NCBI GenBank assembly: GCA_014238535.1
Contig: JABAAW010000006.1
Location: 1-55,489, forward strand
Length of the DNA stretch: 55,489 bases
From: Alphaproteobacteria bacterium
GTDB lineage: Bacteria > Pseudomonadota > Alphaproteobacteria > JABAAW01
Reading direction: 5' to 3'
Numbering within the stretch: the stretch's first letter is position 1; each line of letters begins with the position of its first letter. Shown here in pieces: positions 5,626 to 21,095 of this stretch. Position numbers and translations under genes: made by a program. The notes under the pieces are model-generated. The model saw only the letters and a list, made by a program, of their open reading frames with translations. It made no database searches and was not told the DNA's origin.

Positions 5626-6175
5626 GCATGTTAATATGTTTCACTGTGCCTATGCTCGCGCGCCCGCAAGGAAGCGCAAGCGGGCATAGGCGCGAAACGC
5701 AAAGCTATCTAACCTGACGCAACCTCTTTAATAAACTATGAGAGAAAAGAAACTATATTATTTAAAGTATTACCTTTTTTGCGCATTGCGAGCAATAGCT
5801 CTTGGGGTAATAAGCGTGCGCTTTAGCACACGCTCCGCTGACGAAAGCTCTTCGCAGGGAGACTCGGTCTCCATGGGACTCATCCCCCCACACCACCCTT
5901 GCATGTTAATATATCTCACTGTGCCTATGCTCGCGCGCCCGCAAGGTAGCGCAAGCGGGTATAGGCGCGAAACGCAAAGCTATCTAACCTTCCTCAACCC
6001 TTTTAATAAACTATGAGAGAAAAGAAACTATATTATTTAAAGTAATGTTTTTTTTGCGCATTGCAAGCAATAGCTCTTGGGGTAATAAGCGTGCGCTTTA
6101 GCACACGCTCCGCTAACGAAAGCTCTTCGCAGGGAGACTCGGTCTCCATGGGACTCATCCCCCCACACCCCCCCT
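5626..6175. repeat. Two tandem copies of a 275-bp palindrome-rich repeat
   Basis: Copy 1 (5626-5900) and copy 2 (5901-6175) are nearly identical. Each holds three potential hairpins. In copy 1 these are 5648-5691, with arms GCCTATG/CATAGGC and an inner CCCGC/GCGGG; 5813-5834, a near-perfect palindrome around GCGCTTTAGC; and 5858-5872, GGAGAC-TCG-GTCTCC. In copy 2 one arm of the first hairpin changes C to T but still pairs by wobble, which hints that structure is kept. The unit has the look of a REP/BIME- or MITE-like element. Confidence 0.8.
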
Positions 6176-12785: not shown

Positions 12786-12905
12786 GTCAGGCTAGGTACT
12801 TTAGTCAATTTGCGTCTATGGCTATCTTAAAAGGGGCATGGGGCATATTGCCACGCACGAATGGGAAAGCTCGGTCTGCGTCTATGATTATTTAAAGGGG
12901 GGCGT

Positions 12906-12923
12906 GGGGGGATGAATCCCCCC
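12906..12923. repeat. Perfect G/C hairpin, member of the dispersed repeat family
   Basis: GGGGGGA-TGAA-TCCCCCC forms a 7-bp stem with a 4-nt loop, followed on the plus strand by GC and an A-run. The same core occurs near 5597-5613 and in altered form near 13786-13806 and 14069-14089. It lies 120 bp after pseC. On the plus strand it has no T-tract, so it is not a classical terminator of pseC. Confidence 0.65.
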
Positions 12924-13047
12924 GCAAAAAAAGAAAAATCTTTAGGCAATAAACGAACTATTAGCATGTGTTGCGCGTAGCGTATCTTTTTTTGCATAAG
13001 CGCAAGGTAAATTACTATTAAATGAAAATACAACTATTTTATTTTTA

Positions 13048-13060
13048 TGCTAAAATAGCA
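13048..13060 (+). promoter_or_regulatory. TGCTAAAATAGCA palindrome overlapping an extended -10 motif
   Basis: A 13-bp inverted repeat (TGCTA-AAA-TAGCA) sits two bases before the ATG at 13063. It contains TGC-TAAAAT, which reads as an extended -10 box at 13048-13056. Initiation seven bases downstream would fall on the start codon, and no Shine-Dalgarno is visible, so a leaderless transcript with an operator over the -10 is possible. No good -35 is seen. Confidence 0.3.
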
Positions 13061-13062
13061 AT

Positions 13063-13671
13063 ATGAGTGAAGTAACCTTCGATAGTATTTTTGCAGAGAT
13101 TGAAGAACATGCAAAAGATATTCGCATAAAAGAATTAAAGGAAAATGAAGACAGAAAAATAGCATGGCGGGATAGTGACTTACGCTGGATAAAGGACATT
13201 AGCTCGCCAAAGCAGCTGAGTAAAATCCTTCGGTCATTCCTACTGAAGATGATAGTAAAGGGGAATTTCCAATCCATAGAGGAAAAAACACAATCCAGGA
13301 AACATATTATATTAATCAACGATATAAATTTTCAGATAAAAACGTCTACAATTTGGCAAGGAGAGAAAAAAAGGCACTATAAATTTCAACAAATAAGAAA
13401 AAACAATTACGAAATACTTATTTGCTTTGGCTTGTCACCTTATGAAGCGCATTGTTGGGTTATCAAAAAAGACTGCATTATCGACGATGACAAAGAATGG
13501 ATAGATGATAGAACCATAGGACAACACGGTAAAAATTCGCGATGGCTTATAATAGACCCAGACGCAGTCGCAGATTGGCTACAGCCGCTCGGTGGTGATT
13601 TGCATGAAGCCTTGGCGGTACTGAAAGAAGCTATTCTTACTAGCGATAGTAAGCACGGAATGTTCACATAG
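13063..13671 (+). CDS. Orphan protein, possibly a PD-(D/E)XK-type nuclease
   Basis: I do not recognise this 202-residue protein with certainty. Residues 84-97 (LINDINFQIKTSTIW), the FQQIR segment (108-112), the YEILICFGLSP strand and GQHG (153-156) resemble solitary restriction-endonuclease-like proteins of the PD-(D/E)XK fold. Asp87 and Q91-x-K93 would be the active site, with Gln in place of the usual Glu/Asp. No methyltransferase or other restriction gene is adjacent. The gene is clearly more AT-rich than pseC and uses A-ending codons unlike its neighbours. It is flanked by repeat-rich DNA on both sides, which suggests transfer. It interrupts the pseudaminic acid cluster. The nuclease call is tentative. 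Confidence 0.45.
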   Translation: MSEVTFDSIFAEIEEHAKDIRIKELKENEDRKIAWRDSDLRWIKDISSPKQLSKILRSFLLKMIVKGNFQSIEEKTQSRKHIILINDINFQIKTSTIWQGEKKRHYKFQQIRKNNYEILICFGLSPYEAHCWVIKKDCIIDDDKEWIDDRTIGQHGKNSRWLIIDPDAVADWLQPLGGDLHEALAVLKEAILTSDSKHGMFT

Positions 13672-13735
13672 CTTACGCATGGAGTTAGCGAGGACTCCTC
13701 CCTTGTGCGGAGACTCGTCTCTCGTGCTTTTTCAA

Positions 13736-14530
13736 CGCAAACGAGCCACCAAGCGTCCAAGCCTAAAACTCTTCTTTGTTTTTGCGGGGGGATTCTCCCC
13801 CCACTCCCCCCTATGTGAAAAAGATGCGCTTCGCGCAGTGCCTGCTAAAGATTATTTACCATCGAAAGATGCTTTCTTCTTTTTTGCGAGGGACGAGTCC
13901 CGTGAGACGAGTCTCCGCGCTCCCTTTATGTAGACTAACCAAAGTCTAACAGACTCTCCTTGCTACCTTGTGCTTGTGGCGAGAGGCGTCCGCCAGGCAA
14001 CGCAAACGAGCCACCAAGCACCCAAGCAACCAAGCAACCAAGACTAAAATTCTTCTTTGTTTTTGCGGGGGGATTCTCCCCCCACTCCCCCCTATGTGAA
14101 AAAGATGCGCTTCGCGCAACGCATGCTAAAGATTATCTAACATCGAAAGATTTTTCTTTTTTGCGAGGGACTCGTCCCTCGCACTCCCTTTAAATTAGTT
14201 AATCGTAACTAATAGAGTCTCTGTTTTTTTACGAAGGTTTAGTCCCTCACTCTCCCTTTATGTAGACTACCAAAGTCTAACAGACTCTCCTTACTACCTT
14301 GCTATTACCTCGCGTGCTTGTGGCGAGTGCGTCCGCCAGGCAACGCAAACGAGCAAACAAGCACCAAGCACCAAGCACCAAGCACCAAGCACCAAGCACC
14401 CAAGCCTAATTTTTTTGTTTTTCTTTTTTTTTGCGAGGACGAGTCTCCGCGCTCCCTTTAAATTAGTTAATCGTAACCAATAGAGTCTCTGTTTTTTACG
14501 AAAGATTAGTCTCTCGCGCTCCCTTTAAGT
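13736..14530. repeat. Three-copy complex repeat array with nested palindromes
   Basis: Units begin with CGCAAACGAG at 13736, 14001 and 14344. Each contains an A/C-rich run (ACCAAGC-type), and the first two share GCGGGGGGATTCTCCCCCC, followed by GAAAAAGATGCGCTTCGCGC. All have GACGAG/GACTCG-type small palindromes and CGCTCCCTTTA-type ends. AGACTAAC-CAAAGTCT-type hairpins occur after the first two units. The spacing of 265 and 343 bp shows the units are not perfectly tandem. The hairpins resemble those of the 5.6-6.2 kb repeat. Confidence 0.75.
14359..14400. repeat. Heptanucleotide microsatellite (AAGCACC)6
   Basis: Six perfect copies of AAGCACC run from 14359 to 14400 inside the third repeat unit. 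The two earlier units have only degenerate ACCAAGC runs at the same place, so this tract looks expanded by slippage. Confidence 0.9.
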
Positions 14531-14639
14531 TCTTTCACTGCAATTACAAGCGCATTATGTAACAATAGAATTCTACCATGTGCATGACAATTTGCTAGCA
14601 ATATAAACCTAGAACAGCAAGACACAAACATAGGCAACT

Positions 14640-15722
14640 ATGAGCAAACAAGCTAAACTACATATCGATTTTTTTGCAGACCTACAAATAGCAAGCAAAT
14701 CTAACCCAACCGCAATAGGATTAGGTCACGCACGGCGCATTCTAATCCTAGCAGAAAGCCTACAGCAAAACAATAGCCAGACAACCGAACTACGCTGCTT
14801 TTTTGACGAACCAAACCATGCAAGGCGGTTATTTCCACACACACAACTGCCATTTTTACATTGGTACGACACGAGTAGTAAGCACACCCCCCGCGATTTA
14901 CTGGTAGTAGATTCCTACCGCCTCACCGAGTTGCCCGCCCCTATTCGCAATAGCTATCGTCACATCGCTTGTTTTCACGATGACAAGAGCGCACCGTCCT
15001 ATGCGACAATTGCGATTTGCCCGAATGTCTCTGCACCGCCACCTTCGACCGATACACGCGGAGTGCATCACCTTACAGGAGCGATGTATTTTCCTTTTGA
15101 CCTTAGCCTAACCGATGAAGCATTATCACCGCGTGCGCAGGCGAGGGATGCGTTTCGCGTTATGCTCTGGCTTGGAGGAGATGAGGATGGCAGTAATGTT
15201 GCCCCTTTATTGAACGTTTTACTATCGTCGCCAGTCTTGTCGAATTTTGTGTTTGAGGTTATCCTCTCGCCGCTACTTACCTGTGATCGTGATATTTCGA
15301 GCGATTTGCGCTTGCACTTATCGTCTCCGCAAGTGCGCCTGCATCGAGATATTACTGCGATGTCGCGCTTATTTTCGTTTTGTGGCACCTATGTTGGAGG
15401 CGCAGGAGTTTCGAGTTGCGAGGCTGCGTTGCTTGGCTTGCGCTTGGTTCTTTGTGCGCTTGCAGACAACCAACGAGGCAATGCTAATTCTCTTGCACGA
15501 GCGGGTGCGATTTTATTTGACATTTCGCACCCACAGAGCCTATTGCTTGCATTTTTCTCGCTCCTTGAGGAGAGTCAAGATAGGCAACCTCTTAACTCTA
15601 CAGCACTTGCCTCTACGGCACTTGCCTCTACGGAGCGTGCCTCTAAGGCGGTTAGAGAATTGGGTTTTGACCGTCATGGTGCGTCTCGCCTCGCGAGCGC
15701 GCTTTTGCGTATTATCACCTGA
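14640..15722 (+). CDS. pseG: UDP-2,4-diacetamido-2,4,6-trideoxy-L-altrose hydrolase
   Basis: PseG removes UDP to release the free sugar that PseI condenses. The 360-residue protein is a GT-B-like hydrolase. It shows GLGHARR (27-33) with the catalytic His30 of the family's GxGH motif, and GGAGVSSCEAALLGL in the UDP-binding domain. It is longer than typical PseG (about 275-330), partly from a direct repeat around ALAST near residues 320-335. No GNAT domain is fused, so it is not a PseG-PseH hybrid. The first ~450 bases are A/C-rich on the plus strand, unlike the G/T-rich remainder. Its TGA overlaps the pseI ATG by one base, giving likely translational coupling. Confidence 0.85.
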   Translation: MSKQAKLHIDFFADLQIASKSNPTAIGLGHARRILILAESLQQNNSQTTELRCFFDEPNHARRLFPHTQLPFLHWYDTSSKHTPRDLLVVDSYRLTELPAPIRNSYRHIACFHDDKSAPSYATIAICPNVSAPPPSTDTRGVHHLTGAMYFPFDLSLTDEALSPRAQARDAFRVMLWLGGDEDGSNVAPLLNVLLSSPVLSNFVFEVILSPLLTCDRDISSDLRLHLSSPQVRLHRDITAMSRLFSFCGTYVGGAGVSSCEAALLGLRLVLCALADNQRGNANSLARAGAILFDISHPQSLLLAFFSLLEESQDRQPLNSTALASTALASTERASKAVRELGFDRHGASRLASALLRIIT

Positions 15723-17648: not shown

Positions 17649-18722
17649 TTACAAGCCCCCTTCTTGCCTCTTGCTCGAGCTGATCACCGCAGCGAGTGCC
17701 TTTTCGACAAGGTTGTCGCTAGCCCTACCCTCTTTAACGAAACCACTCGGCTGATGGTCGGTCGCAACATCGAGGATTTTTTGCAGTAGCACTTGCCTAT
17801 CTTGCTCCGTTGTAGCCGCCTTGCTTAAGTTTTCGTATGACTCTAGCGTGATCGCACGCTGGTCGCAGACGATAGCATTATGATTATTGACAGCGTAGAA
17901 ACGCAAGCCACTAAAGAATGTAGCGAGCAGGGTTATCGATAGTAGCGTGTTGACAGAAAATATGGTTTCCAATGCTAGATGAAAATACAGATAATCCCTA
18001 ATAGGTATATGTGGCACCATCGTAGTACTTCCTCGCTGACAATAAGCTAAAAAAGCTAATGAAATCACGATAGCCAACGAGCATGCTAAAAAAGCATAAG
18101 AAGTTTTTTTATAACCTTTTGATTTGTTTCTAAAAGTAACTGCCTGTTCATTTAAATTTCCTACCGTTTTCTTTTTACTCTTTATCCGCTCTTCGATTTC
18201 AGTAAAAAAACTTACTGCATCATCTATTCTGTATATTAACCTTCCAAGAAAATTAATTTTCACCTCCTCAGGCATATTATCTACCGCTACAGATATATTT
18301 ATCTGCAGCTGCTCTAAAAATCCATGTATTTTAATGTTTATTAAAAATAATTCCGCCTGATTGATTTCTTTATAAATAATTGAATCTGTGTTACCTACTG
18401 TTTCTCTAATGAATTCAATAAACTTACGCAAATCATTTTCTGCTTTTACGAATAATTTTTTATTATTTGGATTACTGGTAATAACAGTAATAACATTTGG
18501 CTTAATAACGCATATAAATTTTATTCTATATTCTAATTTTCTTAAATTATTAAAGAATTTAATAGCAGTATCAAATCCATCAAGTGCATTTGTATAATCG
18601 TGCTGTTGTTTTGCTACTGTTTTAGAAGCGTAATCAGCAATTATTTTATCGGCAGCCTGTATGCCACTAGCTGGTTGCACCACCTCTTCAGATTCTTTAG
18701 AAGTTTTTTCGTCTTCAGCCAT
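17649..18722 (-). CDS. Two-transmembrane coiled-coil protein, paralog 1 of 3
   Basis: I do not recognise the function. The 357-residue protein starts with a short acidic segment (MAEDEKTSKE) and GIQAADKIIADY. A predicted helical, charged middle (40-200) follows, then membrane segments at about 208-227 and 250-275 and a conserved tail (RFYA..HNAIVCDQRA, then QKILDVATDHQPSGF). Both ends are probably cytoplasmic. It shares both ends with the genes at 18875 and 20043, while the middle diverges and is much more AT-rich. The layout resembles two-helix membrane effectors of bacterial conflict systems such as SLATT-like proteins, but I cannot confirm that. A CTCCTCC-complementary ribosome site precedes the ATG. 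Confidence 0.75.
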   Translation of the reverse strand: MAEDEKTSKESEEVVQPASGIQAADKIIADYASKTVAKQQHDYTNALDGFDTAIKFFNNLRKLEYRIKFICVIKPNVITVITSNPNNKKLFVKAENDLRKFIEFIRETVGNTDSIIYKEINQAELFLINIKIHGFLEQLQINISVAVDNMPEEVKINFLGRLIYRIDDAVSFFTEIEERIKSKKKTVGNLNEQAVTFRNKSKGYKKTSYAFLACSLAIVISLAFLAYCQRGSTTMVPHIPIRDYLYFHLALETIFSVNTLLSITLLATFFSGLRFYAVNNHNAIVCDQRAITLESYENLSKAATTEQDRQVLLQKILDVATDHQPSGFVKEGRASDNLVEKALAAVISSSKRQEGGL

Positions 18723-18874
18723 CGTTCCCTCTCCTCCTAGCCGTTTACGCTCACGGGCTTACTAGCATGTAATACAAACTCATACAAATTCATGCAACCA
18801 AATACCATTATGGTTCACCTAGACTATGTAAGTTATAGACTAGGATTCATCAACCCAAAAACAAGGAATAGCGA

Positions 18875-19939
18875 CTAACGAGGTTTACCTCTAAGCAATA
18901 TGACTAGCTCTGCCAATGACTTACCTATAAGGCTATCGCCATCCTTATCTTCTTTAGAGAAACCGCTCGGCTGATGGTCGGTCGCCGCATCGAGGATTTT
19001 TTGCAATACCAACAGCCTTTCTTCGCCCGCCGTAGCCGAGTTGCGTAAGGCTTTATAAGATTTTAGCGTATTGGCGCGTTGGTCGCAGACGACGGCGTTA
19101 TGCTTGTTCGCCGCATAGAAGCGGATAGAGGCAAATAGTATGACCAGCAGACTTACGGACAGCAACACCCTAAGAGAAAATATAGTCTTCAGCGCGATGT
19201 AGAAGTAGATATATTCCTTCGCCTCCTTCGCTTCGCTAAGCGGAACTTCAGAGAAGTAATTTGTTAATACAAAGATTGCGCAAACAAATAGGAGAAAAAT
19301 TCCACCCGCTCCTACTAAAAACCAGACTGCATTCTTTTTATATTTTTTTGAAGCAGCTGTAAAATTTTTTGCCTGCGCATCTAAATTACCTACCGTTTCT
19401 ACTTCTTTTAGCCTTTCTTTAATTGCTCCAATTATCTGCGCTATAGATGTATTCGTTAGATTAATATGCTCCTCTAATTTTTCAGCATCAGTTTCTTTAG
19501 CTTCATTTTTTTTAAATTTTATATTTTTTTGCAATAGTTGCAAGAAAGTATCTATTAGACTTTGTGTCCTTGCTAATTCATCTTTATTTGCTTTACTATA
19601 AAAAATTGCCTTTTCATGTAATTCTACTTCGAAAAATGCAATTAATCTTATCAAAAAATTCTTTGTGGTTGCATATATTTCTACTCTCCCACTAGCCGCA
19701 GTTAGGATATTATGATTGAAGGCGCATATAAATTTTATTTGGTAGTTTATTTTTTTACGGTCGTCAAAATTTTTAATCTTATCATTGACATTATCGAGCG
19801 TTGCAGCAAATTTATTTTGTTGCTGAATTGCCCTATTGTTATAACCAAAGTCATCAATTATTTCATCGACAGCCAGCATGCCACGAGTTGTTTTTGCCTC
19901 TGGCTCAGCGTCTTTAGAAGTTTCTTTCTCTTCAGCCAT
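18875..19939 (-). CDS. Two-transmembrane coiled-coil protein, paralog 2 of 3
   Basis: The 354-residue product repeats the plan of its neighbours. It has an acidic start with Lys (MAEEKETSKD), a GMLAVDEIIDDF helix, a charged helical middle (45-195), membrane segments at about 203-225 and 248-276, and a tail with NKHNAVVCDQRANTLKSY and DAATDHQPSGFSKED. The tail is closest to paralog 3. Middle-region residues are Lys/Asn/Glu/Ile-rich, as expected from the AT-rich DNA. GAGGAG lies eight bases before the ATG. The upstream 90 bp nearly match those of paralog 3. Separate promoters, rather than one operon, are likely since the leader is repeated before each gene. Confidence 0.75.
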   Translation of the reverse strand: MAEEKETSKDAEPEAKTTRGMLAVDEIIDDFGYNNRAIQQQNKFAATLDNVNDKIKNFDDRKKINYQIKFICAFNHNILTAASGRVEIYATTKNFLIRLIAFFEVELHEKAIFYSKANKDELARTQSLIDTFLQLLQKNIKFKKNEAKETDAEKLEEHINLTNTSIAQIIGAIKERLKEVETVGNLDAQAKNFTAASKKYKKNAVWFLVGAGGIFLLFVCAIFVLTNYFSEVPLSEAKEAKEYIYFYIALKTIFSLRVLLSVSLLVILFASIRFYAANKHNAVVCDQRANTLKSYKALRNSATAGEERLLVLQKILDAATDHQPSGFSKEDKDGDSLIGKSLAELVILLRGKPR

Positions 19940-20029
19940 CGTCTGCTCTCCTCGTAGTCACGCCCTGCATCTAGGATTTGATAGCAGATAACGCAGTCTT
20001 ATACAAGTTTATGCAACCAAATACCATTA
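19940..20029 (-). repeat. Duplicated leader/promoter region upstream of paralog 2
   Basis: These ~90 bp match 21096-21185 almost base for base, and the corresponding stretch before paralog 1 (18723-18810) more loosely. Read on the minus strand, the leader contains TTGCATAAACTTGTATAAGA, in which TATAAG could be a -10, and ends in GAGGAG before the ATG. Confidence 0.6.
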
Positions 20030-20042
20030 ATGCACCAAGCCG

Positions 20043-21095
20043 CTACTTATTGCTAACGCTAATCAAAGTGGCTAATGCCTTTTCTATAGGGCTATCGCCC
20101 ACCTTATCCTCTTTGGTGAAACCACTAGGCTGATGGTCGGTCGCCGCGTCGAGGATTTTTTGTAACACTAGATGCTTTTCGGTATCGGTCGTAGCCGCAT
20201 TACGCAAGGATTGGTATGACCTAAGCGTATTGGCACGCTGGTCGCAGACGACGGCGTTATGGTAGCTCGAGGCGTAAAAACGAATAGAGGCAAATAGCAT
20301 GACGAGTAAGGTCACTGATAGTAGCGTCCTTGCAGAAAATATAGTTTTTAGCGCGATGTAGAAGTAGATATACTCCTTTGCCTTTTCCACTTCAGTAATT
20401 GTAGCATCAAAGTAGAAGTATGGAAGACAAGCGATTACAGCGACGATAATGACCGTACCTGCCAAGAAGCATCGCGCATTATATTTATATTTTTTTGAAT
20501 TTTTTTCAGAAAAATCTGCCTGCTCATTTAAATCCCCGACCGTTTCTTGCTCTTTTTCTCTTCTGATTTCTTTTTCTCTTATTCTTTTTCTAACGTCACG
20601 AAATATAATTTCTATAACATCTTTTGTTCTATCGGTATTTGATTGTAATTCTTCAGCATTTCCTCTCCCATATTCTATATTATCTTCTAATAGTTGTAAT
20701 AAAAAATTTATTTTTTCGCGTATTTTTGATAATTCATCATAATCTATTTCTTTATAAAAATTCGGTCTTTCATGGATTACATCACGAAAAAAATCAATTA
20801 ACCTACTAAACTTATATTGGGCGTCTGCATATCGTCCTTTAGTAATACTGACTGCGGCAAGGACATCGGGTTTGATAGCGCATATAAATTTTATTCTATA
20901 TTGTATTTTTTCATTTTCTTTTAGATGTTTAATTAACCCATCGATATGAGCTAGCGTTTCAGCAAATTTATTTTTCTGCTTAATTGCCCTATTGATAGAT
21001 TCGAAGTCAGCGATTATTTTATCGACCGCCTGCATGCCGACAGCTGTTTTTGCCTCTGCTTCAGTCTCTTTAGAAGTTTTTTCGTCTTCAGCCAT
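20043..21095 (-). CDS. Two-transmembrane coiled-coil protein, paralog 3 of 3
   Basis: The 350-residue product has the same architecture as the two preceding entries. It has an acidic start (MAEDEKTSKETEAE), GMQAVDKIIADF, a Lys/Glu-rich helical middle that includes a heptad-like RIREKEIRREKEQE stretch, membrane segments at about 203-225 and 244-274, and the shared tail YHNAVVCDQRANTLRSY then DAATDHQPSGFTKED. Conserved Cys-Asp-Gln-Arg and His-Gln-Pro-Ser-Gly-Phe are invariant in all three copies and may mark the functional part. The gene diverges from an unrecognised soluble-protein gene at 21302, so the two could share regulation. Confidence 0.75.
   Translation of the reverse strand: MAEDEKTSKETEAEAKTAVGMQAVDKIIADFESINRAIKQKNKFAETLAHIDGLIKHLKENEKIQYRIKFICAIKPDVLAAVSITKGRYADAQYKFSRLIDFFRDVIHERPNFYKEIDYDELSKIREKINFLLQLLEDNIEYGRGNAEELQSNTDRTKDVIEIIFRDVRKRIREKEIRREKEQETVGDLNEQADFSEKNSKKYKYNARCFLAGTVIIVAVIACLPYFYFDATITEVEKAKEYIYFYIALKTIFSARTLLSVTLLVMLFASIRFYASSYHNAVVCDQRANTLRSYQSLRNAATTDTEKHLVLQKILDAATDHQPSGFTKEDKVGDSPIEKALATLISVSNK

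What the first reader, a model, noticed from the sequence alone, without database searches (positions are those of the whole stretch)
12786..14639. AT-rich orphan gene between repeat-rich stretches splits the pseudaminic acid cluster
Seen: pseC and pseG are separated by about 1.85 kb holding one gene with foreign composition and repeat-rich DNA on both sides, with a perfect G/C hairpin before it and a three-unit repeat array after it. The protein has features reminiscent of PD-(D/E)XK nucleases (Asp87, QIK 91-93, FQQIR, GQHG). Inference: a small mobile or selfish module, or a solitary restriction-like nuclease, inserted in an operon.
Basis: partly seen in the sequence, partly recalled or inferred. 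Interest (0 to 1): 0.55.

Follow-up and report, generated by a model that had tools for sequence, protein, structure and literature searches.

The report
Stranded restriction enzyme with disabled core
A bacterium carries, inserted in a sugar-making gene cluster, a restriction-enzyme relative that sits apart from the kind of DNA methyltransferase it normally pairs with and whose DNA-cutting residues have been replaced, so it probably still recognises DNA but no longer cuts it.

Summary
A 202-residue AT-rich gene (13063-13671) in repeat-rich DNA separates pseC from pseG; two congeners that carry the locus have pseC and pseG nearly adjacent. The gene is not of unknown type: it matches a Type II restriction-enzyme family (PADLOC PDLC03515, 2e-19) and is predicted to have the PD-(D/E)XK fold (best solved match I-Ssp6803I, Z 11.3). 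In other genomes and viral contigs, members of this family lie directly behind one particular methyltransferase (PDLC03300). The window's genome has that methyltransferase too (57% identical to a linked one), but on another contig, at a place where congeners keep it alone. So this is a solitary restriction enzyme, possibly half of a separated restriction-modification system. Best reading: a nuclease-dead, still-folded restriction enzyme, perhaps kept as a DNA-binding protein. The flanking repeats are dispersed in the genome, not ends of a mobile module. Function untested.

The parts
13063..13671 (+). 202-aa Type II restriction-endonuclease homologue (PDLC03515 family), PD-(D/E)XK fold, active-site acids replaced
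   Evidence: PADLOC PDLC03515 E 2.3e-19; AlphaFold pLDDT 75.2, pTM 0.73; Foldseek/VIA best match I-Ssp6803I; residue comparison
13225..13341 (+). disabled catalytic core, residues 55-93: Arg57, His81/Ile82, Gln91, Lys93 where linked relatives have Glu, Asp, Glu, Lys
   Evidence: 2 of 12 family-invariant core residues kept
13342..13641 (+). retained C-terminal part (FQQIR, SPYEAHCWVI, QHG, WL, DWLQPLGG), probably DNA recognition and dimer contacts (inference)
   Evidence: 16 of 22 family-invariant residues kept
12811..12947 (+). left repeat stretch (two 33-nt copies) with the G/C hairpin 12904-12925; inverted relative of the right-hand repeats
13680..14560 (+). right repeat array: 145-nt unit twice plus a partial third; a repeat dispersed on six other contigs of the genome
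11463..12785 (+). pseC, left neighbour
   Evidence: TIGR03588 best match, below cut-off
14640..15722 (+). pseG, right neighbour
   Evidence: TIGR03590 only match, below cut-off

Best explanation
The gene is a solitary member of a Type II restriction-endonuclease family whose usual partner is a beta-class DNA methyltransferase encoded immediately upstream. Here the restriction gene sits alone in the pse operon, while a methyltransferase of the partner family sits on another contig, in a place it also occupies in congeners. The restriction protein keeps the fold and the C-terminal family motifs but has lost the three acidic residues expected to hold the metal ion. It therefore most likely folds, and may bind the methyltransferase's target site when unmethylated, but does not cut DNA. 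Shown: family, predicted fold, separation, congener empty site, residue replacements, open frame. Inferred: loss of cutting, retained site binding, any present function, and that the C26 enzyme shares its target.
For: Family: PDLC03515 E 2.3e-19; a profile of 7 linked relatives finds it at 1e-35. Fold. Partnership: a gene of this family lies directly behind the PDLC03300-type methyltransferase in 5 of the 75 genome loci (of 80 fetched) with at least 800 nt of downstream sequence; of the other 5, one shows the start of such a gene cut by the contig end and 4 are too short to tell; viral contigs add more. Own methyltransferase on C26: 57% identical to the linked Mariprofundales one, next best of the 10 PF01555 genes 32%; PDLC03300 E 1e-120; present in the 3 congeners listed, between der and a permease gene (names by my reading). 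Disabled core: of 40 columns invariant in 7 linked relatives, own keeps 2 of 12 in the core and 16 of 22 after it (Fisher p 0.0033), while 6 remote relatives that keep the acids hold 6-9 of the 12. Two alignments agree on Glu->Arg57, Glu->Gln91 and Gly->Asp87, and place His81 or Ile82 at the Asp. Frame: in a no-selection simulation 1 of 1500 runs in each of two settings is stop-free once the core is that eroded. A viral homologue, L155, right behind its methyltransferase, shows a similar loss, also with Glu->Arg.
Against: Only one genome carries the gene, so selection on it cannot be measured. Glu->Gln alone need not kill: the SPARDA nuclease uses D41, Q60, K62 (passage of PMC12205087). Alignment in the core is weak (about 30% identity overall), the model is moderate (pLDDT 75) and its coordinates could not be inspected, so an acid from elsewhere (Glu73/74) cannot be excluded. 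The simulation ignores indels and assumes an ancestor with a canonical core. The C26 enzyme's target is unknown, its family is mostly found without a restriction gene (70 of 75), and the genome is 81.6% complete, so another partner could be missing. One linked relative, L117, has Asn at the Asp position, so that position may tolerate change.
Confidence: 0.6

Rival explanations
1. A pseudogene on its way out: a restriction gene that arrived or was stranded, lost activity and is decaying without function.
For: Restriction genes of this family decay elsewhere: L174 is a fragment behind its methyltransferase, and L177 differs from the near-identical L176 by a divergent C-terminus. Own branch is long, 2.19 changes per column. 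No sigma-70-like match on the + strand just upstream.
Against: Full-length open frame with coding-like codon-position composition, and 16 of 22 C-terminal invariants kept, which unselected decay does not give in simulation. L215, with its acids intact, has an equally long branch.
Confidence: 0.2
2. An active separated R-M system: the protein still cuts with an altered active site (QxK plus an acid from elsewhere), and the resident C26 methyltransferase protects the chromosome.
For: QxK is catalytic in the SPARDA nuclease (PMC12205087 passage), which has the same fold and is among the structural matches. A matching methyltransferase is resident. Separated systems are described in PMC3488263.
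Against: No Asp or Glu from residue 75 to 86, where the beta2 acid belongs; Glu->Arg in the core helix; only 2 of 12 core invariants kept.
Confidence: 0.15
3. A small mobile or selfish module bounded by the repeats.
For: Inverted repeat arms of 52 nt at 73% on either side; empty site in two congeners; differing composition.
Against: The same repeats occur on six other contigs, at several of them between ordinary genes; no recombinase or transposase seen between pseC and pseG; one copy of the gene in the genome.
Confidence: 0.04

Closest known systems
Type II restriction endonucleases of PADLOC family PDLC03515 paired with methyltransferases PDLC03300
   Same: Sequence family, predicted fold, length (about 181-202 aa), conserved C-terminal motifs
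   Different: Here unlinked from the methyltransferase, and the active-site acids are replaced
Solitary restriction endonucleases and separated R-M systems (Ershova et al. 2012, PMC3488263; abstract, sections 17 and 20 and passages read)
   Same: Restriction gene without a methyltransferase nearby; related linked pairs elsewhere; solitary matching methyltransferase in the same genome. The paper lists loss of activity through active-site mutation as one explanation
   Different: Here the methyltransferase keeps the same solitary place in congeners, and the loss of the core is seen residue by residue
I-Ssp6803I homing endonuclease (PDB 2ost)
   Same: Best structural match, Z 11.3, rmsd 2.3, 125 residues
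   Different: 11% identity; no intron seen here; no sequence-level match to it among PDB chains
SPARDA DREN nuclease domain (PDB 9qcc and others; PMC12205087, passages read)
   Same: Same fold class; Gln-x-Lys at the third motif
   Different: Keeps the Asp that is lost here; works within a short-Argonaute defence complex

Membership tests
Type II restriction endonuclease, PDLC03515 family | profile match over most of the length | tested here: met
   E 2.3e-19, residues 35-183
Type II restriction endonuclease, PDLC03515 family | PD-(D/E)XK (restriction endonuclease-like) fold | tested here: met
   Predicted model only; Foldseek and VIA best match I-Ssp6803I, then NhoI/Eco15I, SPARDA, Hjc
Type II restriction endonuclease, PDLC03515 family | active-site acids and lysine (Glu, Asp, Glu, Lys of linked members) | tested here: not met
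   Arg57, His81/Ile82, Gln91, Lys93: only the lysine kept
Type II restriction endonuclease, PDLC03515 family | site-specific cleavage of unmethylated DNA | not testable with these tools
   needs protein
Ordinary (linked) Type II R-M system | methyltransferase gene next to the restriction gene | tested here: not met
   No PF01555 or PF00145 match on contig C66; none seen in the ORF list by eye
Separated R-M system (sense of PMC3488263) | full-length solitary restriction gene | tested here: met
   202 aa against 181-187 aa for 6 of the 7 linked members of A5, 198 for L139
Separated R-M system (sense of PMC3488263) | a methyltransferase related to those of linked orthologous systems elsewhere in the same genome | tested here: met
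   C26:11839-12849, 57% identical to the linked Mariprofundales enzyme; homology shown, best reciprocal hits not tested
Separated R-M system (sense of PMC3488263) | shared recognition sequence and activity of both enzymes | not testable with these tools
   no methylome or protein
Mobile element | own recombinase/transposase, private terminal repeats, more than one copy | tested here: not met
   ORF list between pseC and pseG; one copy; repeats shared with six other contigs

The most novel reading that the evidence does not exclude
A restriction enzyme turned into a methylation reader: a nuclease-dead member that binds unmethylated (or half-methylated) copies of the site marked by a conserved solitary methyltransferase, as SeqA reads GATC (recalled comparison). 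Replacement of the core-helix Glu by Arg in both the window protein and the viral L155 protein, which sits directly behind its methyltransferase, would then mark a repeated conversion from cutting to binding.
Probability: 0.12. Interest if true: 0.75.

Novelty: new variant of a known kind. Interest (0 to 1): 0.42.

Why it matters
Solitary restriction genes are usually explained as separated systems or as relics. This case gives a partner family, a residue-level account of what is lost and what is kept, and a second case of similar core loss in a viral contig. It makes one question directly testable: are some 'dead' restriction enzymes kept as sequence- and methylation-specific DNA-binding proteins beside long-lived solitary methyltransferases? 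It also warns that a family profile alone would label this protein an active restriction enzyme.

Tried and rejected
Pfam and NCBIfam gave no usable match for the protein; PDB by sequence gave only weak, unrelated matches. Single-protein scans of viral contigs and genome contigs found no relative, and tblastn found none in phages or plasmids (for relatives of it). The methyltransferase route then did find relatives, so those blanks reflect fast divergence.

Considered and rejected: Asp87 as catalytic (turn position); the NPPFG-type methyltransferase systems of G088, G002 and G004 as the partner family (the window protein fits PDLC03515 far better than PDLC03498, 2.3e-19 against 0.0058; those restriction genes keep their acids). 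The profile hits in congeners G004 and G002 belong with that other type, each beside its own methyltransferase, so I do not count them as orthologues. Methyltransferase identity against restriction identity (own pairs 56% and 28%, other pairs 68% and 52%) was not decisive. MseI as a possible named relative came from memory; one paper search naming it found nothing, and it is not used. A QxK motif in HinP1I is recalled only (one search found no paper); HinP1I (2fkc) is among the structural matches. Searches for dead restriction enzymes in print showed none that I recognised in the listings, but most subscription journals are not held; PMC3488263 itself names active-site mutation as a possibility.

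Rows dropped: of the 12 loci with restriction-type hits I used 9 in alignment A4 (L177 nearly repeats L176; L174 and L088 are fragments). Two further minus-strand hits (L152:4960-5502, L193:484-1044) look like a different restriction-like protein and were left out of the counts. L235 was used only. The fold lists show the top 50 rows only.

Full report
What was checked. The 1,854 bp between pseC and pseG hold one sizeable gene, 13063-13671 (+), 202 aa, GC 0.375 against about 0.50 for its neighbours. The hairpin at 12904-12925 and the repeats at 13680-14560 are real and not chance.

The insertion. Of four congeners, two give matches to both pseC and pseG on one contig (G001:C199, G002:C289). 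There pseG begins, by extrapolation from the matches, within about 100 bp of the end of the pseC frame; here the distance is 1,854 bp. The window protein is found in 1 of 41 genomes searched with the single protein and, with a 10-row profile, as a strong match in 1 of 385 genomes of the class, with weak matches in two more. The two congeners' pse stretches do not hold the two repeat words that I tested. So the gene and the repeat-rich DNA look particular to this lineage.

What the protein is. PADLOC family PDLC03515, a Type II restriction enzyme, matches residues 35-183 at 2.3e-19; a phage family of unknown function, phrog_6927, matches at 1.1e-7. PDLC03515 finds the window gene and one weak match (G088) in 385 genomes of the class, and the window gene and G605 in 398 genomes of the phylum. 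G605's contig has the length of the Mariprofundales MAG record WFOX01000124.1 and holds the same genes; there the restriction gene follows directly on a beta-class DNA methyltransferase. Starting from that methyltransferase I fetched 80 genome loci and 80 viral loci and searched their frames by iterated profile. Restriction genes of this family stand directly behind the methyltransferase in 5 of 75 genome loci with at least 800 nt downstream; of the 5 shorter loci one shows the start of such a gene and four cannot tell. Viral contigs add L176/L177, L193, L155, L215 and the fragment L174. The family and its partner are thus tied by repeated adjacency, although most of these methyltransferases (70 of 75) stand without it.

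The partner in this genome. The genome has 10 PF01555 methyltransferase matches and no PF00145 match. The one on C26 (11839-12849, minus) is 57% identical to the linked G605 enzyme, the next best 32%, and matches PDLC03300 at 1e-120. One search finds it in congeners G001, G003 and G004 at 58-68% identity; G002 was apparently not in that sample, as a search of the same sample did not list a G002 match known. In those three it lies between der and a permease gene, as in the window's genome, without a restriction gene beside it. It is therefore a resident solitary methyltransferase. It lies on another contig, so the two genes are not neighbours; the true distance is unknown.

The active site. In 7 linked relatives 40 alignment columns are invariant. 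The window protein keeps 4 of 6 before the core, 2 of 12 in the core (residues 44-85 of relative L105) and 16 of 22 after it; core against C-terminus, Fisher p 0.0033. As a control, 6 remote relatives with the acids present keep 6, 7, 7, 7, 8 and 9 of the same 12. MAFFT and a profile alignment agree on Glu51->Arg57, Glu83->Gln91, Lys85->Lys93 and Gly79->Asp87; for Asp74 they give Ile82 and His81 respectively. No Asp or Glu occurs from residue 75 to 86. In the predicted model (pLDDT 75.2) strands 80-85 and 88-96 leave residues 86-87 as the turn, as residues 78-79 are in the model of L105 (pLDDT 84.8). Gln-x-Lys itself can be catalytic, as in the SPARDA nuclease with D41, Q60, K62 (passage of PMC12205087), so the decisive losses are the Asp and the helix Glu.

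Decay or retention. Random substitution without selection, started from the L105 gene, needs about 440 substitutions to leave at most 2 of 12 core residues; by then 1 of 1500 runs is free of stops in each of two settings, and the median run keeps 5 of 22 C-terminal invariants. The window gene is open throughout and keeps 16. This argues that the frame and the C-terminal half were held by selection while the core went. It is a rough model: no indels, and an assumed canonical ancestor. The branch is long (2.19), but so is that of L215, whose acids are intact. L155, a viral-contig homologue cut off by the contig end, overlaps its methyltransferase frame slightly and shows a like pattern: 2 of 12 core and 12 of 22 C-terminal invariants (Fisher p 0.066, not significant alone), with Glu->Arg at the same place. 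In the tree the two long branches may meet falsely, so I cannot say whether these losses are independent.

The repeats. A search of the genome with 13680-14560 gives 18 matches, one being itself and one the left flank at 12890-12991; the other 16 lie on six contigs, C54, C21, C27, C11, C34 and C13. Those that I read lie mainly between ordinary genes, though two lie near an HNH restriction-like gene (C11) and a methyltransferase (C34). They are dispersed intergenic repeats and do not define a mobile unit.

How it most likely works. The protein should fold as a restriction-endonuclease-like domain, probably a dimer (inference), and the kept C-terminal motifs probably contact DNA (inference). Without the acids it should not hold the catalytic metal. 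If it binds the same site as the C26 methyltransferase acts on, it would see that site only when unmethylated. Whether such binding serves the cell is unknown; relic, regulator and altered nuclease remain open, with the weights given.

Place among known things. Ershova et al. 2012 (PMC3488263; abstract, sections 17 and 20, and passages read) analysed 272 solitary restriction genes, predicted distant partners for 57, and named active-site mutation as one possible reason why some exist without a partner. This finding is a variant of that kind.

Noticed in passing
own genome G000, 10 PF01555 places: Ten N6/N4 DNA-methyltransferase matches in a 1.39-Mb, 81.6% complete genome, which seems many; one, on C88, looks like CcrM beside an rnhB-like gene (my reading).
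   Followed up: partly
L031:440-1228 (G000:C11): AT-rich (0.36) 262-aa gene close to the same dispersed repeats: HNH endonuclease above the Pfam cut-off and PADLOC Type IV methyl-directed restriction enzyme at 1.4e-7.
   Followed up: partly
L032:139-1293 (G000:C34): NPPFG-type methyltransferase (PDLC03280, 4e-38) at a contig end beside the same repeats; no restriction gene seen before the contig ends, whereas congeners G002 and G004 have one directly behind.
   Followed up: partly
window 17649-21095: Three AT-rich (0.36-0.38) look-alike membrane proteins in a row on the minus strand behind pseF; two were scanned and had no Pfam match above cut-off.
   Followed up: no
window 5626-6173: Two tandem copies of a 275-bp unit, 94% matches, shortly after tRNA-Tyr.
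   Followed up: no
L152:4960-5502 and L193:484-1044: A second restriction-like frame (with a GE...VEVKTW or VDVKTW core) on the opposite strand near the methyltransferase/restriction pair in two unrelated loci.
   Followed up: no
L117:4385-4936: Linked restriction gene with Asn at the catalytic Asp position, otherwise intact core.
   Followed up: no
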